The notes under the pieces were generated by a model. The model had not been told where the DNA came from. It made no database searches and saw only the letters and a list, made by a program, of their open reading frames with translations. This document shows, piece after piece, positions 32,600 to 48,785 of a DNA stretch of 55,284 nt (position 1 is its first letter; each line of letters opens with the position of its first letter). This DNA comes from Paracoccaceae bacterium (lineage in GTDB: Bacteria > Pseudomonadota > Alphaproteobacteria > Rhodobacterales > Rhodobacteraceae), in the NCBI GenBank assembly GCA_902534325.1, contig CACAPQ010000015.1:1-55284 (forward strand). The letters are read 5' to 3'. The position numbers were made by a program, and so were the translations under genes.

Positions 32600-32623
32600 G
32601 GAAGTGGTGCCCCCACACGGACT
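32600..32623. repeat. att copy 1: 24-bp match to att copy 2, including the tRNA-Thr 3' end
   Basis: Matches 38525-38548 over 24 bases, including TGGTGCCCCCACACGGACT, the tRNA-Thr 3' terminus with CCA. Marks the left end of element 1 (or the right end of a lost older element). Confidence 0.75.
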
Positions 32624-32838
32624 GCAGAAACTTAAAGTTACACCAAATCAATTCCTGCGTGCAAGAATCCCACGGTTTATACAGCCTGTCAACTTTTGAA
32701 GAACACACAATGAATACCAATTGTGGCTAAATGTGTACCGAATGTGTGACGACAGAAAGGGGATGCATGGGCCACCCTACCCCTAGTGGATAGTTATAGT
32801 TGAGCTTTGACAGAAATTTGGAATTCAACTTTGCAGAT

Positions 32839-34428
32839 TTATCTTTTGATCCATCCATAGTCTGCCATACAGGCTTTTGCTATTGCTTGAGCAAACTCTC
32901 TTGCTGCTCCTCTGGCTTGTGAGCTTGCCAGACCTTCTGCTATTCCAGCCCACATTCCTCCACTACTCCCTTCAAAACATGAAAAACTACGGGATCCAAA
33001 AGCATGGCAATTAACACTATTCGAGCTTCTTCTCGGTTTATTAGCATTTAGATATGAACGTCCCTCTGCTTCAGCTTTAGCCTCACAGATATCTTTTGCA
33101 TCATCAAAAGGTAGTTTCGGATTTCCACTTAAGGGAACCCAACCTCTGGTATTTGAGCTACTGTTAGAACTTGTGCTTTTAGAACTAGTGCTTTTAGGCT
33201 TCTGTACTGAAGAAAAGGTAGAGGGAACGGAAACCTTTTTTAGTAATTTATTAAAAACCAACCATGGCGGATTTTCGTGTAAACCTTCAACAACGATAAA
33301 ATCTGTAATTGCTTTCAGAGTTCCCTTGCCCCATAGCCCATCTATATCGAGTGAGTAGTAGTGCAGTTCTTTCAGAGCATATTGTATTTGTTGCCTTTTA
33401 AGCTTTATATAACGGTTGAATGTTTGGCGAAATTCCAATTCTTTCTTTTTTAGTTCTTCTCTCACTTTCTTTTTTAGCTCTACTGTCACATTACAAAGTA
33501 GTCCACGCTGTCTGGCTTCCTTCAAATGAGGTGCTACCATTCTGTGGGAGCTCCAATATACGGCATTTCCTGCCGTCAAAGTAGCCATCTCACATAAATC
33601 CTCATCTGTGCACTTAGATACCTCCGCTAAAAGTTTACATCGATCTGATGCACTTGGATCTCTCTTTTGGTTTGACAGATTCTTATTTTTTTCATCTTCT
33701 ATGCCGCAATCAAGCCCTCGTCTTTTAGACTCAGCGACATAAGCAGAACGACTAAAGTCCCATTTAATTAAACCATCTTCTATAATCGTAGAATAATGAC
33801 AAAGAGTTTCAACGCCAGTGCACTTTTTAGGGTTACTTGTGCAATGCTTTTGATTTTGGGTATTAACAGAGCAAGATAGCCCTCTTTTTTTTGCCTCTAT
33901 TACGTAACCATCATGGTAGCCTTCATGCCAGTGAATACCCAAAAACATTTGGAATGTTGCTTGCGAACAAAGCTCCGTATCAGCACAGTTTGATAGATTA
34001 GAAATTGAGCAACTATCGTTGGTTATCGGTGAAGATTCTTTTTCAACGTTACAACTAAGGCCATACTCTTTAGCTAAATCTACATGTGCTTCAGCTTCAC
34101 TGTTCCAATAAACATCACTACCTTCTGTGGTTGTTGCTTTCTCACACAGTTCACTGATCTTGCATTCATTAGCATCTAGGTCACAAGGTGATTTCGGATC
34201 TGAAGCTCCACAATCTATTCCTATTTCTTTGGCAAACTTAACATGCTCATCAAAATCTAAATTACTTGTCCAAAACTTTAGACCGTTGACCATCTCGGTA
34301 GAGATATCGCAAAGCTTCTTGGGTGTGCATTGATCTGGATCATCTTTACACTCTTCAGCTATTGAAACTTGAGCAAGACAAAAAAACGATAAGAAACTCA
34401 GCAGAATAATTTTGGAAAGTGTCTTCAT
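32839..34428 (-). CDS. Secreted protein: five Cys-rich modules + coiled coil + peptidoglycan-binding-like domain
   Basis: 529 residues. Signal peptide MKTLSKIILLSFLSFFCLAQVSIA. Residues ~25-310 hold five modules of ~55-65 residues, each with a Cys, then LC..A/ST, a Trp, an A/E-K-G/R-L stretch and a final Cys (e.g. KKLCDIS...IGIDC; SELCEKAT...YGLSC; TELCSQAT...RGLSC). A lysine/glutamate-rich helix comes next (~315-345). LKELHYYSLDIDGLWGKGT is a PG_binding_1-like motif. The last ~130 residues are Ser-rich with two Cys. Predicted to be anchored to the cell wall. Confidence 0.75.
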   Translation of the reverse strand: MKTLSKIILLSFLSFFCLAQVSIAEECKDDPDQCTPKKLCDISTEMVNGLKFWTSNLDFDEHVKFAKEIGIDCGASDPKSPCDLDANECKISELCEKATTTEGSDVYWNSEAEAHVDLAKEYGLSCNVEKESSPITNDSCSISNLSNCADTELCSQATFQMFLGIHWHEGYHDGYVIEAKKRGLSCSVNTQNQKHCTSNPKKCTGVETLCHYSTIIEDGLIKWDFSRSAYVAESKRRGLDCGIEDEKNKNLSNQKRDPSASDRCKLLAEVSKCTDEDLCEMATLTAGNAVYWSSHRMVAPHLKEARQRGLLCNVTVELKKKVREELKKKELEFRQTFNRYIKLKRQQIQYALKELHYYSLDIDGLWGKGTLKAITDFIVVEGLHENPPWLVFNKLLKKVSVPSTFSSVQKPKSTSSKSTSSNSSSNTRGWVPLSGNPKLPFDDAKDICEAKAEAEGRSYLNANKPRRSSNSVNCHAFGSRSFSCFEGSSGGMWAGIAEGLASSQARGAAREFAQAIAKACMADYGWIKR

Positions 34429-34947
34429 GATATTTTTATAACAGCATAAATTTTGAATTTAAAAAAGTATTTGAATATAGACTTCTTAAAAATCCGTTCC
34501 AAATCCTAAAGTGGTTAACGACAAAGATTAAAAGTAACTCTAACTATCTTTGTTTATTGAAGAAATTATCTTTAAGTTTTTCCTAAAGTAGGAAATCTGT
34601 TAACCACTTTTAGTGGCCATTAATTTCTAAAATTAATTATTAGAGGTAGAGATATACTTTAGGTATTTCTTAGTTCACTTAAGTATTAATAATTTTAATA
34701 ATATTGATAGTTAAAAGAACCTTTAAGTGACTAAGAGTTCTTTTTTAACTTCTATTTTTAATAGTAGAACTTGCTTAAGCTATCCTTAAAGTCCCCACTC
34801 TATTTACTCTGTCGTCTCTTCTCTGTCGTCCCAACGTTATGTATTACATCATGTATTCCCTATATTTATGGGAGGACACTTTATGACCCGATTAAGTTTC
34901 CCTTTTATGACCCGATTAAGTTTCCCTTAATATATGGGAGGACACTT
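34429..34947. repeat. 520-base gene-free region with nested direct and inverted repeats
   Basis: TATGACCCGATTAAGTTTCC occurs twice in tandem (34882-34927), flanked on both sides by ATGGGAGGACACTTT (34867 and 34936). AAAGTGGTTAAC (near 34509) is mirrored by GTTAACCACTTT (near 34598). No gene is apparent; a 62-codon frame across the repeats is judged chance. Confidence 0.65.
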
Positions 34948-35475
34948 TTATTCTACTAAACCTGTTGGAGGTTCGGGTGCTTTACCATAGACCACGTCTT
35001 TGACATTAGCCTTCCAGAACCTTTTACAATATCTTGAGGCTTCCTGAGAAATAGTTCCATTAGATCTATTTTCTCTATGAAAGAGATGCTTGTCATCAAC
35101 AGGATGCGGATGAAGCAGCTTATAGTTACTTAAAATATCTCGTAGCCTTACATCTTCACCTGATCTAGCGAGATCAATTAAATTTTTCAAATATCCAAGC
35201 CGCTGCCCAGGAGGTATAGTATAATACTCCTCAGCCAGTCTTTTTGCTTTCTCAAAGAATTCTCTATTTTCTCTTCTTTTAGAAACACTCGTAAGCGAGT
35301 TTCTCTTAATTTCCTTATGTCTTTTTCTACAGTTAGAGGAACAATATATCTTATTCCTTCTACCCTGAACTAATCCAGAGCATCTTGGACAGGTTCTTAT
35401 TTTATTATTTTCGTCAGGAGTAAAATCATCAGTATCAATGATTTCAAAATCATCCCGATCAACGGACATTTCCAT
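34948..35475 (-). CDS. Zinc-finger protein, 175 residues, island-associated
   Basis: A single zinc finger, CPRCSGLVQGRRNKIYCSSNC (Cys x4), with a basic flank (RKRHKEIKR). A helical domain with YYTIPPGQRLGYLKNLIDLAR follows. This arrangement is remembered from small proteins of rhodobacterial genomic islands. DNA/RNA binding is likely. Function unknown. Confidence 0.65.
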   Translation of the reverse strand: MEMSVDRDDFEIIDTDDFTPDENNKIRTCPRCSGLVQGRRNKIYCSSNCRKRHKEIKRNSLTSVSKRRENREFFEKAKRLAEEYYTIPPGQRLGYLKNLIDLARSGEDVRLRDILSNYKLLHPHPVDDKHLFHRENRSNGTISQEASRYCKRFWKANVKDVVYGKAPEPPTGLVE

Positions 35476-35648
35476 TGCGGTTTCCTTTTAAGTGAATTGT
35501 GGGGGTGTCTGTGCTTTAGCTGACAATCACATTTATTAATTCATGAATAAATGCTTAAACGAACAGTACTATATTTTAGGGGTATTGTCAAGTAAATTAT
35601 TGTTTTTATTGATAAATAATAGAGAAGTTTTTTAATATTTTAAGCAAT

Positions 35649-36401
35649 TTATTTTATATTGAAGCTAGTAAAAAAGACTTCCTCAACACCACCGAATCCT
35701 TCAAGTATTTCTAACCTATTGTTTATGGATTTCCTGATCCTGTATGCTAAATCCCTTGGGCCATCCATGCCCCTTAGTTCTGCTGAAGGGAACTCACTTA
35801 CTACACCTAGAATTTCTGACCGGAGTGCTAATTGATGTTTCTCAACATTTTCCATTACAATTTTATCATACTGGGTAGATACTCCAATATTAAACTGTAG
35901 AAATACCTTGGAGCCTTTCAAGTTAGTGGTAAAATTATCTGGGAAAGTATAATAACTCGTTACAAAGGGATCCTCCGCATCATCTTTAATCTCAAGGTCT
36001 TCAGAAGAATTCATTGCCTGCTGAAGTTTCTTTTCGATAAGCTCCTCTACTTCTCCAAGTTCTGAGGTGTTTTCAGGCTCATTCTCATCTGTAATGCCTT
36101 CATTCAGTCTGTAACAACCAACATAGCTGTAAGCTGAGGTATGTTCTTCAGCTCTCACCCAACAGGTAAAATAGTCATGCTGATACAAAACGTGATAAAC
36201 CAAAAGGTCAACATCCGTTGTATACTGATTTAATGTCATATCAGGTTTATTGTTGAGATACTTAAAGTCACGCTTAAGATGTATCTCTTTATGAAGAACC
36301 TTACCGTTTTGGAGTATCTCACCTGCGGTAGGTAAGTGATCATCAGCACTTACAGCCGTAGCACCTAAGATAAGCAATATGGTGAGTAGGATGTTTTTCA
36401 T
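35649..36401 (-). CDS. Secreted protein, 250 residues, unknown
   Basis: Signal peptide MKNILLTILLILGATAVSA, coded by DNA almost identical to that at 21145-21200. The mature part has two Cys (YFTCWVRA, VGCYRL), acidic stretches and strands. Starts inside the stop of the MORN-protein gene (ATGA), so the two are coupled. No family recognised. Confidence 0.65.
   Translation of the reverse strand: MKNILLTILLILGATAVSADDHLPTAGEILQNGKVLHKEIHLKRDFKYLNNKPDMTLNQYTTDVDLLVYHVLYQHDYFTCWVRAEEHTSAYSYVGCYRLNEGITDENEPENTSELGEVEELIEKKLQQAMNSSEDLEIKDDAEDPFVTSYYTFPDNFTTNLKGSKVFLQFNIGVSTQYDKIVMENVEKHQLALRSEILGVVSEFPSAELRGMDGPRDLAYRIRKSINNRLEILEGFGGVEEVFFTSFNIK
36346..36401 (-). repeat. Signal-peptide-coding repeat, copy 3
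   Basis: About 48 of 56 positions match 21145-21200 in the signal-peptide region only. It lies inside integrative element 1, while the other copies lie 15 kb to the left in chromosomal/accessory DNA. Confidence 0.7.
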
Positions 36402-36772
36402 TTTGATACCGGCTGACCGTCCTCATCAAATCTTTCCCAAAGACCGACTTGTTGTCCATTTTTAAAATTTCGTCTGTACATCAATTGACCGTTGTAATGA
36501 TATTCTTCCCATAGAAATACACGTTTACCTTTGTTGTAACTTCCACTGTGGGACACTTGTCCATTGTCGTAAATGAGTTCCCAGTAACCATCTAACTTTC
36601 CTTCTTTGAAATATCCTTTTGAAAGTAACTGACCACTTTCATGATATTTCGTCCAAAGACCTACTTTTAGTCCGTCCTGATAGTGTCCTCGAGACTTCAA
36701 TTCACCATTCTCATGATATTCTTCAATCAATCCGTTCAATTTTTTGTTTTTATGATTATTCAACCCACTCAC
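36398..36772 (-). CDS. MORN-repeat (YwqK-like) protein, 124 residues
   Basis: Five ~22-residue repeats of the form EEYHENGELKSRGHYQDGLKVGLW, each with G-x-W/Y and E-Y-Y-NG-Q. This matches the MORN-variant found in YwqK-type antitoxin-like proteins. It overlaps the next secreted gene (ATGA), a possible toxin-antitoxin-like or protective pair. That role is speculative. Confidence 0.75.
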   Translation of the reverse strand: MSGLNNHKNKKLNGLIEEYHENGELKSRGHYQDGLKVGLWTKYHESGQLLSKGYFKEGKLDGYWELIYDNGQVSHSGSYNKGKRVFLWEEYHYNGQLMYRRNFKNGQQVGLWERFDEDGQPVSK

Positions 36773-36900
36773 CGTTTTTTTGTTTTTATTTTTAACAAAA
36801 GTAATATGAGAACGACATTTTTTTCACAGCCGATTTTAAGCTACAATTATTAAAGTTTCAAATGACTTGCTCTCATAACTTATTTTCGTGATATCAATAA

Positions 36901-37314
36901 ATGAGATCGGTAGAAAAGAGGGTCTCAGTAATGTGGAACATTAATATACTAAATTTAATAAAAGGATTTATTGGAAAGGGCCCTGTAAGGGAATTTTTAA
37001 CAGACCCTGATGGAAACAAATTAATGAGACATGAGATTTCTCAATATAAAGGCAAAAAACAACATGGTTGTTGTGAACTTTATTTCCCAGTGTCAGGTAA
37101 AAAGAGAAAGTTAGAGAATTACTTTCAGGTAAAACACGGAAAAAAACACGGTTTTACTGAATTTTACCATGCTACAACTGGTATGCTTGAGACTAGAACT
37201 TGTTTTATGGATGATGTCCGTCACGGTTGGAGAGAAGTCTTTGATGAAGGAGGACAACTGCTTGAAAGAGAGTTGTACCAAAATGGACAACTTATTGATT
37301 TCCCCTCAACCTGA
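36901..37314 (+). CDS. MORN-like protein, 137 residues
   Basis: KQHGCCELYFP, KHGKKHGFTEFYH, VRHGWREVFDEGGQLLERELYQNGQL are MORN-like units. The start is ATG at 36901, or ATG at 36931 (MWNINILNL) if shorter. Divergent from the YwqK-like gene; both may derive from the same ancestor. Confidence 0.6.
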   Translation: MRSVEKRVSVMWNINILNLIKGFIGKGPVREFLTDPDGNKLMRHEISQYKGKKQHGCCELYFPVSGKKRKLENYFQVKHGKKHGFTEFYHATTGMLETRTCFMDDVRHGWREVFDEGGQLLERELYQNGQLIDFPST

Positions 37315-37357
37315 TAAGTCTTCTGCTCCAAGGTCACGATTTGGGCTTCTTAGTCAT

Positions 37358-38473
37358 TCAACTTTCTAATCTTAAGTCGGCAACTGCTACTTTCTGAAAA
37401 TACTGCTCAATTTTATTTACCCCATATCCATCTCCATACCCTGTCCCTACAGTGGTTATAGACGTCCAACCGCCAATTTGATCTATCAATTCTAAAGGGC
37501 ATTCTACGGCTCTGAGGCGGTCTCTGAAGGTATGTCTGAGGCTGTGCCCTGTTAGCCCAAAGTCTTTCTTTAACCACACATTGAGAGCATTGGAGGCATG
37601 AGTAGATTGGCAGCTTCCCTTCTTTATATATCTTGGAAAAAGATAGCTACCGTCAGCAGACTTTAGGACTAATTCCATAGCTGTCCTGGCATAGCCAACT
37701 AACGGTAAAGTTCGTTTGCTATTTCTGGTCTTTAATCTTCTCACTGCGTTTGGCCTGATATGAATGAGCCCTTGCTCTAGATCAATATCCTTAAGCTCCA
37801 GTCCAACGATCTCTGCTAGTCTGCACCCAGTCTCTCCCAAGAGTGGCATCAGAAGTTTGATCTTACTACCTGACGCTATGGCATGCTCATATCCCTGCTT
37901 CAGCTGCTCGTGAGTAAAGGTACCCCGTTTAGAAGTATCATTTCCTTCATTCTGAATGATTAATCTCGAGAAGGGATTACGTTTATCCAGATCTAACTCA
38001 GCATGTGCATAGTTAAGAATAGCACTGAGGCTGTTGATACGCCTTCTGATTGTAGCTGTTTTATTTCCTTTAAGGGTGAGATGACGAACAAACAGCTTAG
38101 CATCTTCTCGAGTATACTCACTGACATCTCTATCCCCTGCTACTAATATAAAGGCTGACAGAGCTACTCTGGGGGGTGTTTGATCAATAGGTCTTAAGGC
38201 TAGGTATTCTTCTGCTATTTCTGAAAGTTTCGTTGTTTTGGGTTTATAGCTTTCAACAATAGAGCTAATATCCACTGGTCGTATCTCTGTCGTATTTCTC
38301 CAAGATCCCTCAAGTACATAACTAAGACGTTTTGCATACTCTTCTGATTCCTGAGGGCATTTCGAGAGAGCTACTCGAATGAATTTTCCATAAGCTTTAA
38401 CTGCGTGTTTAGGCACACGTCTATTGTAATAATAGCAGCCTGAACGACTGATTGTGTACGGGATGTGTGACAT
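37358..38473 (-). CDS. Tyrosine recombinase (phage-type integrase) of element 1
   Basis: 371 residues. N-terminal SAM-like core-binding region (residues ~60-155), then the catalytic domain. ETGCRLAEIVGL contains the first Arg, GHSLRHTFRDR the H-x-x-R box, IGGWTSITTVGTGYG the Trp and the nucleophilic Tyr. GGAGG lies 10 bases before the ATG. Ends ~50 bases from the right att, consistent with an integrase next to its attachment site. Confidence 0.9.
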   Translation of the reverse strand: MSHIPYTISRSGCYYYNRRVPKHAVKAYGKFIRVALSKCPQESEEYAKRLSYVLEGSWRNTTEIRPVDISSIVESYKPKTTKLSEIAEEYLALRPIDQTPPRVALSAFILVAGDRDVSEYTREDAKLFVRHLTLKGNKTATIRRRINSLSAILNYAHAELDLDKRNPFSRLIIQNEGNDTSKRGTFTHEQLKQGYEHAIASGSKIKLLMPLLGETGCRLAEIVGLELKDIDLEQGLIHIRPNAVRRLKTRNSKRTLPLVGYARTAMELVLKSADGSYLFPRYIKKGSCQSTHASNALNVWLKKDFGLTGHSLRHTFRDRLRAVECPLELIDQIGGWTSITTVGTGYGDGYGVNKIEQYFQKVAVADLRLES

Positions 38474-38529
38474 GATTTTACCTCCAAAAGTAAATCTTGA
38501 AGGAATTTCAATGGTCTAACTTTAGGAAG

Positions 38530-38575
38530 TGGTGCCCCCACACGGACTCGAACCGCGGACCTACTGATTACAAAT
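38530..38575. repeat. att copy 2: 46-bp perfect duplicate of the tRNA-Thr 3' half
   Basis: Bases 38530-38575 are identical to 48710-48755, the tRNA-Thr 3' half including CCA. Bounds element 2 on the left and abuts element 1 on the right. A single base differs just after (CAAAT-T versus CAAAT-C). Confidence 0.9.
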
Positions 38576-38707
38576 TAGCTGGTCCTAGTGTGCAGCCCAT
38601 TTTCAAAACAGTGTAAGATAAAATTTTTTATGTTTAAAAACAATACATAAATAAATTTATCCTGTGCAATAAGATTGCAAAGTAGAGCAAAGAACTGTAT
38701 GATTTTT

Positions 38708-38725
38708 GGAACCCATATGGAACCC
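38708..38725. promoter_or_regulatory. Integrase arm-type candidate, left: GGAACCCATATGGAACCC
   Basis: Two GGAACCC heptamers 11 bases apart, 133 bases inside the left att of element 2. The same 18 bases recur near the right att (48646-48663) with one base changed. Overlaps the region just upstream of the integrase start. Confidence 0.5.
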
Positions 38726-38729
38726 AAGG

Positions 38730-39902
38730 ATGCCACGCAGAACAACATCTCGATTAACAGACGCTTTTGTCAGAAGTCTTAAACCTCGCGAAAAACGGTA
38801 CGATGTTTATGACGCGCAGCTAGCTGGCTTTGGAATAAGAGTAAGCCCTTTAGGAACTAAAAGCTGGATAGTGCTTTCAAGAAACCTCCAAAGGAAAACG
38901 AGAGTAACACTGGGCCGATACCCTCAAATGTCTCTAAATACTGCCCGACAACACGCGTTAGTCATACTCAACGCTATGGCGCAAGGAGAATATAAGCGCA
39001 CCAATTCATTTGAGCTTTTTCCTGATGCACTTCAGGAATGGTATTTAAGAGATCAGTCGACTAATAAAAGTTTCGCACAAGTTGAAAAAACAATCGCACT
39101 TCATGTTGAACCCTATCTTAAGAACTTCAAGATTAGGGAGATTGAAAAAAGAGATCTTCTTAAAATCATCGACCGGGTTGGAAGAAAAGCTCCCACACAG
39201 GCCAACCGCGTTCTTTCTTTTGTAAAGAGGTTCTTTACTTGGTGCGTATCGCGAGACCTACTTGACGTATCGCCAGCAAATGGCATTGCAAAATTTAAGA
39301 CCGAACAAGGGCGAGATCGGGTTCTCTCTCCCATCGAGTTGGAACGTGTCTATCAGACCTGTGATCAATTAGAGTACCCCTTTGGTCCCCTTTACAAGGT
39401 CTTACTTCTGACTGGTCAACGCTTAAATGAAGTAGCCGGCATGAGTTGGACTGAGGTCGATTTCAAAAGTGCAATATGGACCATTCCCAGCGAGCGCGCA
39501 AAAAACAAATCAAGCCATCTTGTTCATCTAAGCAATCCAGTATTGAAAGAGCTAAATGCTCTCTATGAATTCTCATCATCAGAGTTGGTATTCACAACAA
39601 CTGGCAGCACACCTGTTAGTGGATTTTCTAAATCAAAACGAAAACTGGATCATTTATCGGGTATAACGAATTGGCGTCTCCATGATCTACGCCGCAGTTT
39701 CGCAACTGTAACAACGGAGACACTGGGCTTTGAGCCGCCTGTTGTCGATCGGATCTTGAACCATGTAAGTGGCAGTGTACAGGGAATCGCTGCCGTGTAT
39801 CAGCGCGGAGAATATCTCAAAAAGCGTAAAGAAGTACTCGAGAGATGGGCTAATTACCTCGAGGGTCTGGGACAGTATGGGACCCTTCAGATAGTCTCCT
39901 AA
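38730..39902 (+). CDS. P4-family tyrosine integrase of element 2
   Basis: 390 residues from ATG at 38730 (AAGGATG); a TTG at 38706 is less likely since it would include the arm repeat. N-terminal DUF4102 region (LTDAFVRSLKPREKRYDVYDAQLAGFGIRVSPLG), SAM-like middle, catalytic LTGQRLNEVAGM (Arg), LHDLRRSFAT (H-x-x-R) and HVSGSVQGIAAVYQRGEYL (His and Tyr). Reads into the element from its left end. Confidence 0.9.
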   Translation: MPRRTTSRLTDAFVRSLKPREKRYDVYDAQLAGFGIRVSPLGTKSWIVLSRNLQRKTRVTLGRYPQMSLNTARQHALVILNAMAQGEYKRTNSFELFPDALQEWYLRDQSTNKSFAQVEKTIALHVEPYLKNFKIREIEKRDLLKIIDRVGRKAPTQANRVLSFVKRFFTWCVSRDLLDVSPANGIAKFKTEQGRDRVLSPIELERVYQTCDQLEYPFGPLYKVLLLTGQRLNEVAGMSWTEVDFKSAIWTIPSERAKNKSSHLVHLSNPVLKELNALYEFSSSELVFTTTGSTPVSGFSKSKRKLDHLSGITNWRLHDLRRSFATVTTETLGFEPPVVDRILNHVSGSVQGIAAVYQRGEYLKKRKEVLERWANYLEGLGQYGTLQIVS

Positions 39903-40108
39903 TCATTCCCAAAAAATCCCATAAAAATGTTTAAAAACAGTACTTTATTTGTGTTTTTGATGCATTCTTCATTTACGTGCAAGCCATGTCTATGCTATGA
40001 CTAAAATCAAAGAGATCTCTTTTTATTAACCGTTGTGAGCCGCTGAAAGCGCTCTCAACACAGATTTTGTCGTCATAAATTTTGACGCCAATTTGAAAAG
40101 GAGATGAA

Positions 40109-41500: not shown

Positions 41501-41528
41501 TCTTGCCAAAACGGAACCAAGACAGTGT

Positions 41529-41553
41529 GACACCCCCCATATAGGGGGGTGTC
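41529..41553. repeat. Perfect palindrome with 10-bp arms downstream of the ATPase gene
   Basis: Arms GACACCCCCC and GGGGGGTGTC enclose ATATA. It lies 29 bases after the ATPase stop. Candidate replication origin element or transcription terminator. The C/G runs are unusual for this AT-rich element. Confidence 0.7.
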
Positions 41554-41669
41554 CACTATTGTCCATTGGCGCGCGTCTTGTCTCCAATTGAAATTCAGAC
41601 TTCACAAAACAAAGTTTCGCGATAAGCTGGGTTATACACTCGCACCACTATTGGAGAAGAAATACACCA

Positions 41670-42431
41670 ATGAATGTAATTGCTGGATTACTTCAAATAG
41701 TCGGCTTTATAATGCTTTTTACCCCATTATTTATAATAGGAATAATCTGCATTGTAATTGGTGGCTTCATATTCTTTACAACAGATAAAGTCGATGATGC
41801 CATATCCAAAAGAGATACAAAAAAACACAAAGAGCACGCCAGTAAAACAAATAAAGAATTCAAAAAGAATTTCAGTATGGATCCGCTATCAGAAGATACT
41901 GAGACAGCGTTTAATAAACTTTCCTACAGTGATAAACTGAATAAGAGTTTTTCCAATCACACTTTAGAAGATAAGTTTCGAGATACTACTTATAGAGAGC
42001 GCGTAGAGATAGCTTTAGATAGGTTTGAAAAATCTTATATCGCTAAGGGCGAAGAGTCTCTCAGAGATAAGTTGGAGATGGACGAAAACCTACTTGGATC
42101 AACTGAAAAATACAGACAAACATGTCAGTATCTTAATAGAAAACCAATTCCTGAATTAGTTGAAGATTTTGTTGAAAGAGAACGATATGAAAAATGGAAA
42201 GAAAACCGCGAGCAAGAGCAACTTGATGAACGAGTGTTGTTTATAAAAAACGGTATTCAAAAATTAACATCTGAAAACAAATCACGTAAATACATTCAGG
42301 GCGCTGTTCAGTCCGATTATAGACAAAAATTTGAAGAGGAAGTTGAACTTCGGAGCATAAATGGAAGCTGGACAGCTAAAAAAATACTTTACAGCAGGGA
42401 ACCAATAGAACTTGGCGTTTTTACCGAGTGA
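41670..42431 (+). CDS. Membrane-anchored charged protein, 253 residues
   Basis: N-terminal two close helices (VIAGLLQIVGFIMLFTPLFIIGIICIVIGGFIFF), then a long, highly charged coil rich in K/E/R without recognised domain (e.g. REQEQLDERVLFIKNGIQKL). Function unknown; likely membrane-anchored cytoplasmic. Confidence 0.6.
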   Translation: MNVIAGLLQIVGFIMLFTPLFIIGIICIVIGGFIFFTTDKVDDAISKRDTKKHKEHASKTNKEFKKNFSMDPLSEDTETAFNKLSYSDKLNKSFSNHTLEDKFRDTTYRERVEIALDRFEKSYIAKGEESLRDKLEMDENLLGSTEKYRQTCQYLNRKPIPELVEDFVERERYEKWKENREQEQLDERVLFIKNGIQKLTSENKSRKYIQGAVQSDYRQKFEEEVELRSINGSWTAKKILYSREPIELGVFTE

Positions 42432-42647
42432 CTTTTTAGGTACCCTAGACTCTCCAATCCAAAATCCATTGGATTTACAAAACGACCGCACTCCCCTTTT
42501 ATAAAGATAAATAATTTTATGCCTTTACTCTGTGATCAGCTCAAACGGTTATACTATTTCCACTTAGCTGCACCGCTTACAGAGAGAGCGAAAAAATTCC
42601 ATTAAAAGATACCCTATAACAGGTGAAAAATTTGATAGTAGCATGTG

Positions 42648-43137
42648 TTAGCGGCTACCGCAGAACGCTCTCATCATAACCACTTTTGGTGTCCCGCCAT
42701 TACGAGTTTGGGTCCATACAACCTCGGAAATACTTGGATATTTGCTGCTGCCCGAATTTTTTTGCCCATCCAAACGGAATAAGTATGTTTCAGTGAAGCT
42801 CTCAACAGAGGCATCTACAAAGAATAAGTAAGTGCTATTAGAAGGATTATAGCTTAACAGGTAGGTTGGATGTGTAATAAATTTACCACCTGAACCATCA
42901 TCGTAACCTATTCGATACTCCTTTTTGCCAGCATTGGTCTCAAATTTAAGGAACAACGTCATATTTGAAAACCCATCGTCAACGAAGGGCTTAAATTCTT
43001 TATTGGGACTTTTGGCCAAGTAGTGAGCCACCCCCCTTTGATACACCGCAAATAGCTAAAAAATCAGCTGATGCCGTTAAAGGAAATATCGTAAAGATAG
43101 ATAAAAAAAACGCCGTTATCTTCAGTCTTTCAAACAT
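42648..43137 (-). pseudogene. Secreted-protein gene broken by a frameshift at a G6 run
   Basis: A signal-peptide frame (MFERLKITAFFLSIFTIFPLTASADFLAICGVSKGG) ends early, while a second frame starts MYQRGVAHYLAKSPNKEF. Removing one G from the G6 run near 43033-43038 joins them as CGVSKGVAHYLAKSP. The repaired product would have the signal peptide and ~160 residues, ending RAFCGSR with matching Cys. Either a recent mutation, a sequencing error, or phase variation. Confidence 0.65.
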
Positions 43138-43225
43138 GAAATTTATACTCCCACAAATAATCTCGTTTAACTGTATTATCAGTTTCCAGATTCTCAAAAT
43201 TTAAATTCTATGCTAATTTTATATT

Positions 43226-43555
43226 ATGAAGAACTTCCAGCATGTCTCTGAACTTGGGAAAGCCACGCGCTTCGGGCCTAATTGGCCGGGTAAGCGATGC
43301 TTGGCCAAAACACGTAAAGGAACCCCATGCCAACGCCCGGCTTTCAAACACAATGGCAGGTGCAGTCTGCATGGTGGGCTGTCAACAGGCGCTAAAACGG
43401 CTGATGGTTTGACGAGAATTTCAGACGCAAACCTTAAACACGGAAAGTATACTAAAGATAAGCTCGAAGCCCAGCGCTATGCTGCTAAGATTGGAAGAAG
43501 AGTTTTGGCCAAGTTAAAGCAGCTAGAGATCCTGCTGGCCACATCTTCCAGATAG
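43226..43555 (+). CDS. HGGXSTG-domain protein, 109 residues
   Basis: CLAKTRKGTPCQRPAF, then CSLHGGLSTGAKTADGL match the HGGXSTG family of small phage/island proteins (with Cys residues likely binding zinc). Charged C-terminus. Function unknown. Confidence 0.75.
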   Translation: MKNFQHVSELGKATRFGPNWPGKRCLAKTRKGTPCQRPAFKHNGRCSLHGGLSTGAKTADGLTRISDANLKHGKYTKDKLEAQRYAAKIGRRVLAKLKQLEILLATSSR

Positions 43556-43612
43556 CAGAATCATTGATTTAAACAATTTGGAAGATAGCAAAAAAAATTA
43601 ATAAACGAGAAA

Positions 43613-43694
43613 TTGTCTATCTTTTTGTCTATTTTTCTTCACATATATTGTAAATAATATCTATTTTTATTATTTTTGTCTATTGTTTGCTATT
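43613..43694. promoter_or_regulatory. TTGTCTAT direct repeats upstream of the XRE gene (candidate operators)
   Basis: TTGTCTAT occurs at 43613, 43625 and 43676, with a near copy (TTTGCTAT) at 43687, all in the 180-base gap before the XRE regulator start. The repeats fall in AT-rich promoter-like DNA. Likely bound by the regulator. Confidence 0.55.
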
Positions 43695-43740
43695 TTTTTA
43701 TCTACTACCTTTGTAGGTATCGAAGGATAAGGTCACAAAC

Positions 43741-44760
43741 ATGAAGTTTACAACTACTGATATAAAAAAGCGAATGCAGGCTGAAAATATTTCTCAAAGA
43801 GATCTAGCCAGAAAACTTGGTGTTACTGACCGAACAGTTAGTAGATGGATTAGCAGTAACCAAAAGATACCTTCAAAATATTTCGAAAAGATAAAAGATA
43901 TTTTGTCTTTGGGGATGGAAGAAGACTTTGAGGAAAGTGACTACGGTTTTTTAAATCCACCAAAATCGGGAAAAAAATTATTAAGCTATCTAAGTTTTAA
44001 AACGCTGAACGAATATGAATACGTTGCCAATGAATTTGGAATTAGCTCAAATGAATTAGTTAGAATTGCACCAAGCTTACTAATCGCAATGAGCAAGTTA
44101 GCCTTAGAAGACACAGAAAAAAAAGTAGAGCAATTAGAAAAATTAAGCGCACAACTCCCGCCAAGGTGGGGGCCTCAAGATGATTTGGCGAAAAAAATTT
44201 TTCGGCTGCAAAAAGAGGCCGTGGAAAGTCAAGATGCATTTAAAATATACGGTAGCTTTGACATATTTTTGGGCAATGTATTGAAAAGAGTAAATCCTAC
44301 TGCTGTGTATGGACCCATGCAGTCTTTTCATGAACCATATCGAAAACTGACTGATATCTTCGATGAAAAAACAAATAGTTCAATCCATTACGCAATATCT
44401 CTTGGTATTATTGATTTATCAGAAATAAATTGGAACCTGTGGACTCATGAAAACCGTAAAGAGCTTCTCAGCAAAATAATCTTTGCAATCGAAAAAAGAT
44501 CTGAATTTTTCAAAAAATATGTACCTAAGCACGAAGACTATATTGAAACAGTCTTAAATATAAAAGCAATGCTTTTTGCGTTTTTAAAAATCATATCAGA
44601 AGTATCTGACCTAACGAGTGAAGACAGAAAAAAATCAACTAAGTTACTAGAGAAAATGGAGTTAGAGAACGACGAAAAGCTTTTTGTCGAACAAACACTT
44701 TTCTGGAGCACTCAACTCACCAGAAACAGATTTCAACTGGGTACAGACAATTTTGAATGA
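43741..44760 (+). CDS. XRE-family regulator with long helical C-terminal domain, 339 residues
   Basis: Residues ~8-55 form an HTH_3: MQAENISQRDLARKLGVTDRTVSRWISSNQ. The remaining 280 residues are predicted helical with no recognised motif (no ImmA/peptidase). Its stop overlaps a downstream start. Presumably the main regulator of the element's cargo. Confidence 0.7.
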   Translation: MKFTTTDIKKRMQAENISQRDLARKLGVTDRTVSRWISSNQKIPSKYFEKIKDILSLGMEEDFEESDYGFLNPPKSGKKLLSYLSFKTLNEYEYVANEFGISSNELVRIAPSLLIAMSKLALEDTEKKVEQLEKLSAQLPPRWGPQDDLAKKIFRLQKEAVESQDAFKIYGSFDIFLGNVLKRVNPTAVYGPMQSFHEPYRKLTDIFDEKTNSSIHYAISLGIIDLSEINWNLWTHENRKELLSKIIFAIEKRSEFFKKYVPKHEDYIETVLNIKAMLFAFLKIISEVSDLTSEDRKKSTKLLEKMELENDEKLFVEQTLFWSTQLTRNRFQLGTDNFE

Positions 44761-44786
44761 GCCCAAAAATCATTAAAAAGGAGATT

Positions 44787-45038
44787 ATGATGATAACGGA
44801 AATGACACCAAGGGCCTCTTTAACAGAGGAGGCAAAAATTGAGATAGACATAGTAACTGAGTCAGGAAGCGCTTTTGGTTTATGCGATAATGGTGACCAA
44901 GTCTTTTTAAATTCGAGGATTGTAGATCGCATGGAGCTACAAGAGGGTGATATTTGCCGAGCCTTATTGCTTGAAAACTTTGAAGACAAAAGAGCTATAA
45001 CACCATGGCGAGCGGTAAGAGTTTCGCTAACAAATTGA
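44787..45038 (+). CDS. Small OB/cold-shock-like protein, ~83 residues
   Basis: Start ATGATG preceded by AAAAAGGAG; the ATG at 44757 is an alternative that overlaps the XRE stop. SGSAFGLCDNGDQVFLNSRIVDRMELQEGD...TPWRAVRV has the strand pattern of a cold-shock-like OB fold. RNA/DNA binding suspected. Confidence 0.55.
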   Translation: MMITEMTPRASLTEEAKIEIDIVTESGSAFGLCDNGDQVFLNSRIVDRMELQEGDICRALLLENFEDKRAITPWRAVRVSLTN

Positions 45039-45109
45039 GCCCTGATTAACAGAGCCAAAATTTAATTAATCAATAAAATTTTATAACGATGTGAAAGGTG
45101 GCAATTGCT

Positions 45110-45319
45110 ATGACCGACCGAATAAATACTGCAGAAATTATAGAAGATATCGTCCACGGCTATAAGAAAGGCCAAACAAACATAGATGAAGCTTCATTAG
45201 CTATCTCTCAGTGTACGAATTTACAGGAGGAGATAGTCAAGTGTTTCTTAAAAGTTATGAAACGATCAAATATTATCGAACACTCGTTTGCTGGAGAGAA
45301 AAATGATACCTCCATTTAA
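45110..45319 (+). CDS. Hypothetical protein, 69 residues
   Basis: ATG at 45110 with AAAGGTGG upstream. MTDRINTAEIIEDIVHGYKKGQTNIDEASLAI and further sequence is helical, with two Cys (SQCTNLQEE, VKCFLK). No recognised family. Its 3' end overlaps the next start by 17 bases. Confidence 0.5.
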   Translation: MTDRINTAEIIEDIVHGYKKGQTNIDEASLAISQCTNLQEEIVKCFLKVMKRSNIIEHSFAGEKNDTSI

Positions 45320-45527
45320 ATCGATATCTCTAAAAGAAATGCATCCACTACAAATTGAGGCACTCACAGAAGTCCTCCACCTAACATTAGATTTGGCCTC
45401 GAACTCACGTGATGAAGAGGCCCTAATTTTAGCGGAGGCCGCTTGTGATGAACTAATGCGTTTATTTGGAGGCCTTGGCGTTCAAGTCATATTCGCAGAG
45501 GGAGAGGAAGCTTCAGATGAAGTATAG
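45303..45527 (+). CDS. Hypothetical helical protein, 74 residues
   Basis: ATG at 45303 with GGAGAG upstream, overlapping the preceding stop region. Acidic, helical (IEALTEVLHLTLDLASNSRDEEALILAEAACDELM). Overlaps the GIY-YIG gene by 11 bases. Function unknown. Confidence 0.5.
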   Translation: MIPPFKSISLKEMHPLQIEALTEVLHLTLDLASNSRDEEALILAEAACDELMRLFGGLGVQVIFAEGEEASDEV

Positions 45528-46398
45528 TAGTCACACAAAATTCGCTGAAACATCTGGTCATGATGGTAAGATTTATATCTTAAAGAGAAATCATGGTGAT
45601 GTGGTCAAAATTGGAGAAACCAGCAAAACTGCAACAGGTAGGCTCAAGGATTATTCAAAAAAGCATGGACTTGTAGGTTTCCGAGTTCACAAGGTGTATA
45701 AAGTCCCCATGGAGGCTCGTAAAGAAATAGAGCGGCTAGCTTTCAAGAGATTAAAAAAATACCAAATTCAGGATTTAGCCGGTGCCAAAGAGGTGTTCGA
45801 CTGTGGAGTTTTTAGAGCTGAACAGGCAATAGAAAGTGCAATTAAAGAGAGTAAAATTGCTATTTATGCCAAGAAAAAAGCAGATGCTCAGGCTAAATAC
45901 CAGGCCGCACTAGAAGAACGAAAACAGGCCGCTAAAGAAGAGTTCCAAAACTCCAATTGGTTAAAAACAAAAACTCGGCATTTTGAAAACTTTGTGAATA
46001 ACACGGTATTTGAAAAAAAAGGTGAGCGGAAAACTAATGAGGTTATTGATGATTGCTTCCTTGCTATTTGCTGTTGGGCATGTAGTGCTACTTTGCTCTG
46101 GGCATTTGCGAGCACTCAACATTATTTAGTAATTATATTTGCTATATTAGTTGGGTTCGCAGGTTTCAATTGCTTAAAAGAGACATTTCAGAAACCCTCT
46201 CCCATTCCTGACCAAGAAGCACTGGATAAGAAGAAGCAAATAGAGGATGAAATTGCCACTGCTGAAAATAGCGCCGTGCAAGAAGCAGAAGCAGAGTTTC
46301 GAAAAAAGTATAAGTTGGAAGATTTTTTTTACCCAGAACCACCTTATCGAAGTAGGGTAAATCACAACGTCATTGTACCTACTCAGCATGCCGGCTAG
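45517..46398 (+). CDS. GIY-YIG (T5orf172/MUG113-like) nuclease-domain protein with membrane segment, 293 residues
   Basis: ATG at 45517 overlaps the stop of the previous gene. Residues ~15-105 follow the T5orf172-type GIY-YIG core: GKIYILKRNHGDVVKIGETSKTATGRLKDY, then RKEIERLAFKRLKKYQ. A charged coiled coil, two membrane helices (~residues 185-225) and a charged tail follow. A nuclease fused to membrane anchors suggests action at the envelope, perhaps against incoming DNA. That role is inferred. Confidence 0.65.
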   Translation: MKYSSHTKFAETSGHDGKIYILKRNHGDVVKIGETSKTATGRLKDYSKKHGLVGFRVHKVYKVPMEARKEIERLAFKRLKKYQIQDLAGAKEVFDCGVFRAEQAIESAIKESKIAIYAKKKADAQAKYQAALEERKQAAKEEFQNSNWLKTKTRHFENFVNNTVFEKKGERKTNEVIDDCFLAICCWACSATLLWAFASTQHYLVIIFAILVGFAGFNCLKETFQKPSPIPDQEALDKKKQIEDEIATAENSAVQEAEAEFRKKYKLEDFFYPEPPYRSRVNHNVIVPTQHAG

Positions 46399-46421
46399 TT
46401 CAAATTAAAGGGAAAAAATTG

Positions 46422-46586
46422 ATGGATACATTTGAGCAGTCAGTAAGAAAACGAACCCTTATCGCACTTGGTATAATCATCGGTTTAACGCTTGTCTTGG
46501 GTTTTTTCTGGGTAAATCAAAACAACTGTGATTTGGTAGGCAATGTGGAAAGACATGATTGCGATTTAAGTAAACTGAAAGATTAA
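46422..46586 (+). CDS. Single-TM microprotein, 54 residues
   Basis: MDTFEQSVRKRTLIALGIIIGLTLVLGFFW is one helix; the tail holds two Cys (NNCDLVGN, HDCDLSK). AAAGGGAAA precedes the ATG. It links the GIY-YIG and 410-residue genes with small gaps. Confidence 0.5.
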   Translation: MDTFEQSVRKRTLIALGIIIGLTLVLGFFWVNQNNCDLVGNVERHDCDLSKLKD

Positions 46587-46590
46587 CTCA

Positions 46591-47823
46591 ATGGCTGCCT
46601 ATAATCTTGATAGTGTAAATAAATATAAAAAGCTTATTAAAGCTGAAGATGATTACTGGGAAGAAGAACTTTCTACAGAATTTTGTATTGCTCGAAGAAC
46701 TAGAGATATACTGATAGGCAGACAAATTGTTAATGGTTTTGAGCAAAGTAAAAGAACTGCTGCAAAAAAATTTGTTTTAGATTTTCAACAAGAAACTGTT
46801 TGGCAAGAATACTTCAGAACTTATGTTAAAACTGAGGCTACGATTGGAGATTTTTACGCGATTTTCATAAGCCCCACCGAGCAATTCGCAGAAGAATACT
46901 CAAAACACGATGAAGTTTTTTTTCCCAAAGTTTTGGACGCAAAAGAAAGTGAACAAATTTCTGAAGAATTAAAATCAAGTTTTCGTGATTTGCTAAAACT
47001 TTTTAAGAAGCATCGGAACACAGAATTCTGGGAAAATGAAAAAGAATGGGAGTGGTTTTTCTTTCAATACTTAAAATTTTTAGTCCATAATTTTTCTGAA
47101 GAAGCTTGCAGAGATGGCCTTGGGATTTTTATTAGTGTTATTATCAAAATGCACCAAATTGTTGAGAAATCAGGTTGGGAAATTGACTACGGGCTTTACG
47201 ATAACCCAGTTAGTGTTTGGGGAGGGCAGAGCCTTATTTCAAAATTCCAAGCTCGCAGAAAAGCGAAAGACTTGGCAAAGCGACTTACAACTAGATTAGG
47301 CTTATCTAAAAAAAGTACTGGGCTTCGATTTTCAAATAGACTGAGAGACCATGTATTTTCCTATTTTTTAGGTATTTTTATGACTATTTGTTTTACTTTG
47401 GCAGTCTACCTGTTTGCTGATTTAATAATTTCAACAGTATTTTTTATAATTTATGGATATTGGACTTCAGTCTTTCAAAACGCACTTACTTTGTTTTACC
47501 AAAAAATGTATGTTTTTGGTCCTGAGATTTGGAGGATTAATACTAGCCTTCTTGGCCTAAATTATCTGATAAATGAGTTTGTCGCCTTGCAATTCACCGT
47601 TGCTGGAAGATGGCTTATGTTTGGTATTTCACTCTTTGTAACAATAGTATTACTAATTATTGGAGTAATATTTGATATTGAATTAAAGGACAAAAGTTCC
47701 AATCCAAATACTCCCGAAGATGTTTCCCTCGTATGGATGTTAGGTATCCTCTCCTATATACTTATACTTGCTCCAATTGTTTTTGGTGTGCCTTTTGGAA
47801 TTTTTATTTACTTTTTTATTTAG
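46591..47823 (+). CDS. Integral membrane protein, 410 residues, unknown
   Basis: Residues ~1-240 are soluble and aromatic/charged. The C-terminal part has about four helices (FLGIFMTICFTLAVYLFADLI; IISTVFFIIYGYW; RWLMFGISLFVTIVLLIIGVIF; WMLGILSYILILAPIVFG). Not recognised. It starts 4 bases after the microprotein stop, so it is part of the same operon. Confidence 0.6.
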   Translation: MAAYNLDSVNKYKKLIKAEDDYWEEELSTEFCIARRTRDILIGRQIVNGFEQSKRTAAKKFVLDFQQETVWQEYFRTYVKTEATIGDFYAIFISPTEQFAEEYSKHDEVFFPKVLDAKESEQISEELKSSFRDLLKLFKKHRNTEFWENEKEWEWFFFQYLKFLVHNFSEEACRDGLGIFISVIIKMHQIVEKSGWEIDYGLYDNPVSVWGGQSLISKFQARRKAKDLAKRLTTRLGLSKKSTGLRFSNRLRDHVFSYFLGIFMTICFTLAVYLFADLIISTVFFIIYGYWTSVFQNALTLFYQKMYVFGPEIWRINTSLLGLNYLINEFVALQFTVAGRWLMFGISLFVTIVLLIIGVIFDIELKDKSSNPNTPEDVSLVWMLGILSYILILAPIVFGVPFGIFIYFFI

Positions 47824-47830
47824 TTAAAAT

Positions 47831-48514
47831 TTAAAAAGGCACATCACATTGCTCTCGATATCTATCTAAATAGTTTCCTAATCCGTATTTTTTCTTCACG
47901 TGATCATGCAGGTAAGGATCAAAGTAGGATTTGAGCCCCTCTCTCCACACAGGATCAGATTTAACTAGCTTTACGTATTCATCTAAGTGAAGAGATCTAT
48001 GCGATATTATTTTTGCAACCCAAAGGGCCTGATTATATCCACTCCTAAAACGTATTTTTTCAGTAAGCTCAGGTTTTTTGATTTTATCTAAATTATCCGT
48101 GAGTGATGGGGACATACCTTGAACTGAAAACTCTTTTTCAAGTTGGTATTCAGTTCTGAACTCCAGATCAAAAATGTGAATGTTGTTACCTGCCCTGTAA
48201 TCATCTTCAATAACAGACCTTAAATAAGATGAGACTTGAAGGTCTAATATTGGGCGGTCTGATTTTGCACAGTAAGTGAACATTGCAGCATCTTTTAGGT
48301 TTTTTGCTCGTAATGAAGGATGTGGACCTCTATTCAGAACTATAGGATTCTGTACCTTTGTTTCTTGGTTAAAGGTTTCAAATACTAATTCTGGTTTTTC
48401 TGGGACTATTTTTTTTTCGGAATATTTTAGAAAATCTCCAAAGAGCCAACGGTCAACCTTACCCCACATGGAAAAGGTGCTAACCCTTAACTTACAATGA
48501 TCCATTTCGCCCAT
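47831..48514 (-). CDS. Hypothetical protein, 227 residues
   Basis: Last gene of the element before the tRNA, convergent with the 410-residue gene. No membrane helix. Sequence includes MFTYCAKSDRPILDLQVSSYLRSVIEDDYRAGN and DNLDKIKKPELTEKIRFRSG. It does not match a family known to me. Start ATG at 48514 or 48505 (MDHCKL). Confidence 0.5.
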   Translation of the reverse strand: MGEMDHCKLRVSTFSMWGKVDRWLFGDFLKYSEKKIVPEKPELVFETFNQETKVQNPIVLNRGPHPSLRAKNLKDAAMFTYCAKSDRPILDLQVSSYLRSVIEDDYRAGNNIHIFDLEFRTEYQLEKEFSVQGMSPSLTDNLDKIKKPELTEKIRFRSGYNQALWVAKIISHRSLHLDEYVKLVKSDPVWREGLKSYFDPYLHDHVKKKYGLGNYLDRYREQCDVPF

Positions 48515-48645
48515 ATGATCTTGCTCTAAATGCTGATATTTTCGCTATTTCTTTGGCGTGGAGTACATCATTAGCACCATTTAAGATTATCGCAAAATAA
48601 AAAGAGTTCTTTTTTGCATTGCTAGGGCTACACATCGAATATTTT

Positions 48646-48663
48646 GGAACCCATTTGGAACCC
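48646..48663. promoter_or_regulatory. Integrase arm-type candidate, right: GGAACCCATTTGGAACCC
   Basis: 17 of 18 bases match 38708-38725. The pair of heptamers lies 47 bases left of the tRNA att core, inside element 2. Confidence 0.5.
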
Positions 48664-48671
48664 AAAAAACA

Positions 48672-48706
48672 AAAGGCCCAGCGTGATTTTCGCTAAGCCT
48701 TTGATT
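48672..48706. terminator. Stem-loop between element 2 and the tRNA
   Basis: AAAGGC..AGCG pairs with CGCT..GCCTTT around TGATTTT; T-rich flank on + side. Probable terminator downstream of the tRNA (minus strand). Confidence 0.5.
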
Positions 48707-48709
48707 TTA

Positions 48710-48785
48710 TGGTGCCCCCACACGGACTCGAACCGCGGACCTACTGATTACAAATCAGTTGCTCTACCAGCTGAGCTATAGGGGC
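48710..48785 (-). tRNA. tRNA-Thr (UGU), with encoded CCA
   Basis: 76-nt cloverleaf on the minus strand. 7-bp acceptor (one G-T), D-loop with GGT, anticodon loop TTTGTAA giving anticodon TGT, T-loop TTCGAGT, discriminator A and CCA. The 3' half (46 bases) is duplicated at 38530-38575, so insertion restored the tRNA. Confidence 0.95.

What the first reader, a model, noticed from the sequence alone, without database searches (positions are those of the whole stretch)
32600..48785. Tandem integrative elements at one tRNA-Thr gene
Three copies of the tRNA 3' end (24 bp at 32600, 46 bp at 38530, complete tRNA at 48710) divide the region into two elements with their own integrases. Element 2 inserted most recently between element 1 and the tRNA. 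This gives exact borders for cargo and a hotspot to compare across strains.
Basis: seen in the sequence. Interest (0 to 1): 0.7.

Follow-up and report, generated by a model that had tools for sequence, protein, structure and literature searches.

The report
Stacked mobile elements at one tRNA
In a marine bacterium, several pieces of mobile DNA have landed one behind another at the end of the same transfer-RNA gene, each leaving a copy of the gene's end as a border; this is a known kind of arrangement, here unusually easy to read.

Summary
Confirmed, with corrections. Intact tRNA-Thr(TGT) at 48710-48785 (-); copies of its 3' end at 38530 (46 bp exact) and 32605 (19 bp exact). The intervals 32605-38529 (E1) and 38530-48709 (E2) each carry a tyrosine integrase and a private arm-type repeat near both ends, the expected anatomy of two integrated elements. 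A relative carries E1's left end next to different DNA, fixing that border.

Corrections. (1) The array is longer: left of 32605 lies an arm-bearing stretch that looks like the right end of another element, and a decayed fourth tRNA copy sits at 9298-9326. (2) E2 being newest is not shown: E1 entering the 38530 copy gives the same structure. (3) The locus is a hotspot: a sister genome with 96-98% identical flanks has 2.4 kb where the window has 32 kb.

Wider context. In this genus the same arm sites stand at a fixed distance from several tRNA genes, at least once beside a unit without an integrase.

Kind: tRNA-targeted integrative elements in tandem accretion, as known from Dehalococcoides ssrA islands. 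New member of a known kind; the sharing of arm sites across tRNA targets is the most interesting lead.

The parts
48710..48785 (-). intact tRNA-Thr(TGT), the integration target
   Evidence: ARAGORN; Rfam tRNA 71.7 bits
38530..48709 (.). Element 2 (E2), 10,180 bp, from the 46-bp tRNA copy to the tRNA 3' end
   Evidence: repeat borders; arm repeats inside both ends
38530..38575 (-). 46-bp exact copy of the tRNA-Thr 3' end (junction E1/E2)
38704..38727 (+). E2 arm-type repeat TTTTGGAACCCATATGGAACCCAA, two bases upstream of the likely int start
   Evidence: 2 hits in window, shuffles 0
38730..39902 (+). E2 tyrosine integrase (P4 type), at the tRNA-distal end; catalytic R,K,H,R,H,Y kept
   Evidence: Pfam; alignment with three relatives; start codon is my choice
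40109..40306 (+). small AlpA/Xis-like DNA-binding protein, candidate excision factor
   Evidence: PHROG 4745 and 66; NCBIfam Xis_Gifsy_1 E 4.6e-4, far below its cut-off
40307..41500 (+). AAA_25 (RepA-like) ATPase
   Evidence: Pfam E 5e-20; primase/helicase PHROGs
43226..43555 (+). HGGxSTG-domain protein (partial terminase-small-subunit match)
   Evidence: NCBIfam NF041373 E 1e-17; phrog_9231 E 1.3e-5
43741..44760 (+). HTH regulator
   Evidence: Pfam HTH_3; PHROG repressors
45466..46398 (+). T5orf172-domain protein
   Evidence: Pfam E 3.2e-6
47831..48514 (-). 227-aa E2 protein at the tRNA-proximal end; 61% homologue beside tRNA-Lys in G008
   Evidence: no Pfam match
48642..48665 (+). second E2 arm-type repeat, right end
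48672..48702 (-). intrinsic-terminator-like site for the tRNA, carried in E2's right end
   Evidence: 1 found, 0.3 in shuffles; -20 kcal/mol, z -3.68; near copy beside a different arm pair in G014
32605..38529 (.). Element 1 (E1), 5,925 bp
   Evidence: borders; arm repeats; left end shared with L118
32605..32623 (-). 19-bp copy of the tRNA-Thr 3' end, left border of E1
32732..32750 (+). E1 arm-type repeat, left end
   Evidence: 2 hits, 0.02 expected
38453..38471 (+). E1 arm-type repeat, right end, inside the first codons of int
37358..38473 (-). E1 tyrosine integrase (DUF6538-like N-terminus), at the tRNA-proximal end
   Evidence: Pfam; a 32% relative lies directly downstream of tRNA-Thr in G084
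32839..37314 (.). E1 cargo: secreted-looking Cys-rich protein with a PG-binding match below cut-off, 175-aa protein with paired cysteines, FliL-domain 250 aa, MORN_2 protein and a 137-aa protein without a family
32518..32604 (+). likely right end of a further element (E0): arm-like pair TGGTGGCCCATGTGGTGGCC before the core
   Evidence: by resemblance to other right ends, no second copy of this arm in the window
9189..9326 (.). decayed older junction: right-end module (from 9189) and fourth tRNA-Thr copy (9298-9326)
16420..48709 (.). region that holds other DNA (2.4 kb) in the sister genome G014

Best explanation
The region is a head-to-tail stack of site-specific integrative elements at the 3' end of tRNA-Thr(TGT) in an uncultured marine Rhodobacteraceae genus. 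Each element enters by tyrosine-recombinase crossover between its own copy of the tRNA 3' end and the resident one. The element's copy rebuilds the tRNA and the displaced copy is left behind as its distal border. E2 (10.2 kb) uses a P4-type integrase and a core of up to 46 bp; E1 (5.9 kb) uses a DUF6538-type integrase of another group and a core of 19 bp. Shown: the borders, both integrases, a matching arm-type repeat near both ends of each element, a terminator-like hairpin for the tRNA in E2's end, an older tRNA copy to the left, and different content of the whole region in a sister genome. Inferred: that the arm repeats bind the integrase, that the 65-aa AlpA-like protein directs excision, that the E2 integrase represses itself through the arm site at its start, that a further element ends at 32604, and that the elements can still excise.
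For: tRNA copies beyond chance and their exact lengths. Integrases with conserved catalytic residues for E2. The E1 arm pattern matches only at 32732 and 38453 in the window and the E2 arm pattern only at 38704 and 48642; both patterns were written from these sites, so the point is that no other place matches. In the whole 2.09-Mb assembly the E2 arm pattern with up to 3 mismatches has one further place. E1's left 225 bp recur at 90% in G003 with another outer flank. Sister G014: flanks 96-98% identical, 2.4 kb instead of 32 kb. A 32% relative of the E1 integrase sits directly downstream of tRNA-Thr in G084. G028 has a match to the whole tRNA-Thr and a 48-bp copy 48 kb away with integrases of the E2 profile beside both.
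Against: No read or PCR evidence of circles. E1 and E2 are placed in one assembly of 74 contigs at 78% completeness, and I found no relative with the same E1+E2 pair in the loci read. No empty tRNA-Thr site with the E1-E2 flanks was seen: in G014 the site is occupied by other DNA. No relatives in viral contigs for the E2 integrase or ATPase by a search for close relatives only, so the mode of transfer between cells is unknown.
Confidence: 0.9

Rival explanations
1. Same two elements, opposite order: E2 came first at the tRNA, and E1 later entered the 19-bp core inside the 38530 copy.
For: E1's core is only 19 bp and is fully contained in the 38530 copy. Partial tRNA-Thr copies of 11-20 exact bases are frequent in the genus: 8 such copies in 5 other genomes among the stretches read.
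Against: Nothing specific. The most decayed copy is farthest from the tRNA (9.3 kb), which fits entry at the tRNA end in general but says nothing about E1 against E2.
Confidence: 0.35
2. One composite element, 32605-48709, with two integrases facing away from an internal tRNA copy, moving as one unit.
For: The arrangement int(-)/copy/int(+) around a tRNA copy also appears in G028 (4200790 -, copy at 4202129, 4202373 +). Stacked units can also leave together.
Against: Each half has its own pair of arm repeats near its own two ends. E1's left end (G003) and relatives of E2 genes (G008) occur apart from each other. In G009, G001 and G003 the integrase of the E2 profile has no second integrase on the other side of the copy.
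Confidence: 0.07
3. Integron-like cassette array: the ~48-bp repeats of the left half are recombination sites of an integron integrase.
For: 53 repeat matches in 13 of 16 genomes of the genus, shared stretches in different arrangement. The repeat contains GTTAGGT, which fits the integron core-site consensus GTTRRRY as recalled. As single-stranded DNA the window copy at 19540-19640 folds somewhat better than shuffles (z -1.8 on both strands).
Against: The second copy tested does not fold as DNA (z -0.01 and -0.55), and the set does not fold as RNA (-0.67 kcal/mol, 0 of 4 pairs compensatory; z 0.28 and -0.42). The PF00589 search of 16 genomes gave 26 hits; I saw only their frame lengths and scores, no integron-specific model was run on them, and genomes are 53-96% complete.
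Confidence: 0.06
4. Assembly chimera of a fragmented genome.
For: Named relatives look like single-cell assemblies by their name style (recalled), which can be chimeric. Assemblies do break at this repeat: G005 contig C30 starts exactly at the tRNA 3' end.
Against: Arms and borders agree with integration. The E1 left end, relatives of E2 genes and the same tRNA flank recur in other genomes.
Confidence: 0.04

Closest known systems
Dehalococcoides ssrA genomic islands (PMC3146451; passages read)
   Same: tandem islands at one RNA gene, bordered by 20-bp copies of its 3' end, some with an integration module and 15 without; the authors suggest cis-mobilizable elements moved by accretion
   Different: target is tmRNA and the recombinase is a serine type; here tyrosine integrases of two groups at tRNA-Thr
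Additive flexible island fGI-2 of Ca. Methylopumilus (PMC10872708; passages read)
   Same: recurring 20-bp copies of a tRNA-Lys end in front of islands of variable size in a streamlined aquatic bacterium
   Different: integrases and arm sites not described in the passages I read
Tycheposons of Prochlorococcus (original paper not held; known to me through PMC10872708 passages and recall)
   Same: tRNA-bordered cargo elements with a tyrosine recombinase in aquatic bacteria
   Different: not tested for membership
P4-type tRNA islands (recalled) and the KplE1 prophage (PMC2951348; abstract and outline read)
   Same: integrase next to an att site that overlaps its promoter region, negatively autoregulated in KplE1; tRNA-associated
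   Different: E2's integrase sits at the tRNA-distal border, unlike the layout I recall as usual for P4-type islands; no phage structural gene was recognised in the proteins scanned

Membership tests
tRNA-targeted integrative element (genomic island) | direct repeat of the tRNA 3' end at both borders, tRNA intact | tested here: met
tRNA-targeted integrative element (genomic island) | site-specific integrase with conserved catalytic residues | tested here: met
   Pfam for both; catalytic residues invariant in the alignment for E2; E1 read by eye only
tRNA-targeted integrative element (genomic island) | arm-type repeats near both ends of the same element | tested here: met
   binding not tested
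tRNA-targeted integrative element (genomic island) | excision as a circle | not testable with these tools
   no reads or PCR
Tandem accretion with cis-mobilizable members | several att-bordered units in series at one site | tested here: met
Tandem accretion with cis-mobilizable members | units without an integrase but with both ends | tested here: inconclusive
   not seen in the window itself; a single (not tandem) unit of 10,851 bp at tRNA-Lys in G230 has both ends and no integrase; a 1.2-kb unit in G014 at tRNA-Thr has one degenerate core
Tandem accretion with cis-mobilizable members | mobilisation by a neighbour's integrase | not testable with these tools
   needs an excision assay
Tycheposon | features defined in the original Prochlorococcus paper | not tested
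   paper not held
Integron | IntI integrase | tested here: inconclusive
   26 PF00589 hits in 16 genomes not typed with an integron model; the E1 integrase scores 26.7 bits against a cut-off of 265 for TIGR02249
Integron | attC sites that fold as single-stranded DNA | tested here: inconclusive
   two copies tested: z about -1.8 for one, about 0 for the other
Prophage or phage satellite (E2) | structural or packaging genes | tested here: inconclusive
   10 of 17 E1/E2 proteins scanned with PHROGs: a partial terminase-small-subunit match E 1.3e-5 (43226-43555) and one at E 2.9e-4 in the HTH regulator; no close relative of two E2 proteins in IMG/VR

The most novel reading that the evidence does not exclude
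In this genus the arm site, not the tRNA, defines the mobility family. Elements with and without an integrase at five or more tRNA genes carry the same arm pair at a fixed 64-66 bp from the tRNA end, so that one element's integrase could serve cargo-only elements parked at other tRNAs: a shared, trans-acting mobility network.
Probability: 0.2. Interest if true: 0.7.

Novelty: new member of a known kind. Interest (0 to 1): 0.42.

Why it matters
It gives base-exact borders for cargo in an uncultured marine lineage and a relative time series: an older unit shared with a sister genome, then 32 kb that differ between genomes whose flanks are 96-98% identical. The shared arm sites at several tRNA genes make a clear question testable: can one integrase move integrase-less cargo at other tRNA targets?

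Tried and rejected
My notes call the repeat a hairpin or terminator; folding did not support that. Arm and target as exchangeable protein modules: 33 integrases, trees of the N-terminal part, C-terminal part and whole. The four integrases with a long tRNA-Thr(TGT) copy beside them do not group in any of the three trees; the targets of most others were not determined because my tRNA library held 12 kinds; inconclusive. Viral contigs: 0 exact matches for the repeat; 21 and 3 stretches matched a peptide pattern of the E2 integrase and ATPase but none encodes a relative. PADLOC on 10 of 17 E1/E2 proteins gave only matches of E 1.5e-6 or weaker. PDB: 0 matches for the E2 ATPase. Outside the genus the GTTTCCCC arm pattern is weak: 11 of 198 genomes, own included, 13 sites against 5 hits of the reversed control; of the 13 loci, 3 (own, G226, G230) lie beside an intact tRNA-Lys and 1 (G084) beside a partial tRNA-Thr copy. 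The left part of the window is collinear with G014 only; G002 and G005 match 3174-8528, and in the stretches fetched beyond that G005 has just a 350-bp match to 8795-9144 about 7 kb away. Literature: searches without a hit; listings seen but papers not opened, apart from the three papers named.
Full report
Observation. The window holds one tRNA gene, tRNA-Thr(TGT), 48710-48785 on the minus strand. Its 3' end recurs at 38530 (46 bases exact) and 32605 (19 bases exact); 100 shuffles give none. The window is contig C15 of an assembly of 2,094,639 bases in 74 contigs, 78% complete. A scan of named genomes with the ~48-bp repeat gave 7 stretches: 6 from Rhodobacteraceae isolates such as AG-359-N23 and AG-390-A18, 1 from a contig labelled Flavobacteriaceae. 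That the AG names are single-cell genomes of an ocean survey is recalled.

Two elements. E2 spans 38530-48709 and has a P4-type integrase whose likely start is the ATG at 38730, a small AlpA/Xis-like protein, an AAA_25 ATPase, an HGGxSTG protein, an HTH regulator, a T5orf172 protein and proteins without a family. E1 spans 32605-38529 and has an integrase of another group at its tRNA-proximal end, plus a secreted-looking Cys-rich protein, a FliL-domain protein, a MORN_2 protein and others. Each element has one arm-type direct repeat near each end: E1 at 32732 and 38453 (0.02 hits expected), E2 at 38704 and 48642 (0 expected). These are pairs of about 8 bases with a period of 11, as I would expect of integrase arm sites; binding is inferred. 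In E2 the left arm ends two bases before the start codon; in E1 the right arm lies inside the first codons. Such overlap suggests self-repression, as reported for KplE1 and proposed for most tRNA-associated integrases (PMC2951348, abstract read). E2's right end carries an intrinsic-terminator-like hairpin for the tRNA (z -3.68), and G014 carries a near copy next to a different arm pair.

Borders tested with relatives. The first 225 bases of E1 (32602-32826) recur at 90% in G003 (locus L118, 2086-2309) behind a different outer flank, so 32605 is a real border. In G008 a 61% homologue of the 227-aa E2 protein lies beside tRNA-Lys, with the E2 arm 66 bases from that tRNA's end; homologues of the 109-aa and 93-aa E2 proteins (78% and 82%) lie 16-18 kb further on. 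A 32% relative of the E1 integrase lies directly downstream of tRNA-Thr in another genus, G084. G028, G018 and G026 show a match to the whole tRNA plus a second match of 46-49 bases (98-100% identical) 48, 13.4 and 4.6 kb away (positions), and G028 has integrases of the E2 profile beside both. The tRNA is thus a recurrent target in the family.

The array is longer than two. Left of 32605 lies an arm-like pair at 32518 followed by sequence that resembles element right ends, so 32605 is probably a junction between elements. A fourth copy of the tRNA 3' half, decayed, lies at 9298-9326 behind a right-end module homologous to the one at tRNA-Thr in G001: alignment score 93, against 38 for the best place in the window that is not a known copy (minus strand) and 29 on the plus strand. 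In G014 the copy is closer to the tRNA. Between it and 32605 lie a cluster that looks like N-methylglutamate synthase subunits (my reading) plus a type III glutamine synthetase and many small genes with four interspersed ~48-bp repeats.

Turnover. G014 matches the window at 96-97% over 1-16420 (about 360 bases near 15.5-15.9 kb excepted) and 98% over 48661-52189, but has 2.4 kb where the window has 32.3 kb. Cargo is exchanged: 22097-22858 is 93% identical in both G014 and G008, and 21544-22858 is 97.6% in G004, while G008's flanks match at 82-89% and G014's at 96-98%.

Order. If E1 came first and E2 then used the tRNA, the result is what we see. If E2 came first and E1 then used the 19 bases at the left of E2's left copy, the result is the same. 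The order stays open.

Wider pattern. Searches of 16 genomes of the genus found the GTTTCCCC arm pattern at 22 sites in 10 genomes, the E2 arm at 10 sites in 7, and a GTAGCCCC arm at 5 sites in 4, with 0 hits of each reversed control. Of the 32 sites of the first two kinds, 17 lie beside a tRNA that ARAGORN accepts: 15 at 64-66 bases from the tRNA 3' end (Thr-TGT, Thr-CGT, Lys, Arg-ACG, Arg-TCG) and 2 at 149-150 (Ser). Two of the Lys calls (L148, L159) have a diverged 5' part and may be partial copies. The other 15 sites have no intact tRNA in the fetched stretch; some border partial copies or an integrase start, and the rest were not classified. Integrases of the E2 profile in the genus for which I identified arm and core are few: the window (arm GGAACCC, Thr-TGT), G001 and G003 (arm GTAGCCCC, Lys) and G009 (arm GTTTCCCC, Thr-CGT), all beside a partial tRNA copy rather than an intact tRNA. 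Genomes are 53-96% complete and contigs break at these repeats, so an excess of ends over integrases is suggestive only. In the genus the clearest unit without an integrase is 1.2 kb at tRNA-Thr in G014, with one degenerate core. The cleanest case is outside the genus: G230 C1, tRNA-Lys, 10,851 bp with a 46-bp core copy at the far end and an arm inside each end. I scanned 10 of the 14 listed ORFs and none is an integrase, and none of the genome's 10 PF00589 hits lies inside. It may be a decayed element that lost its integrase.

Known or new. Tandem islands at one RNA gene, some without integration modules, are described in Dehalococcoides (PMC3146451, passages), and repeated tRNA ends before variable islands in Methylopumilus (PMC10872708, passages). 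E1 and E2 are new members of this kind. Searches that gave no paper under their words; these do not show that nothing is in print.

Noticed in passing
window 17869-17912, 19566-19620, 25105-25161, 28913-28953: A ~48-bp interspersed repeat (core CTTAGCAACCTAACCGCTGCTAGTTTTT), 53 matches in 13 of 16 genomes of the genus. It does not fold as RNA; as DNA one of two copies folds slightly better than shuffles. Of 41 distinct copies with full flanks, 11 have an arm-like pair within 90 bp downstream and 0 upstream. Function unknown.
   Followed up: partly
window 9189-9326: Decayed tRNA-Thr end copy and right-end module, showing an older border of the array.
   Followed up: yes
window 9444-13805: Cluster resembling N-methylglutamate synthase subunits (my reading) with a type III glutamine synthetase (TIGR03105), lying inside the old part of the array.
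   Followed up: no
window 30714-30831: 118 bp found inverted at 90% in G003 (locus L111 5528-5643), there behind a 48-bp repeat; may be an att end for a target other than a tRNA.
   Followed up: no
window 34847-34948: Tandem and dispersed 24-27-bp repeats beside the E1 gene 34948-35475.
   Followed up: no
L184 (G230 C1) 2497-13347: 10,851-bp element at tRNA-Lys without a recognised integrase; cargo with beta-lactamase-family, cyclase, SOUL and fatty-acid desaturase domains.
   Followed up: partly
L109 (VMCW01000180.1): The repeat of this Rhodobacteraceae genus occurs in a contig labelled Flavobacteriaceae MAG; possibly misbinned.
   Followed up: no
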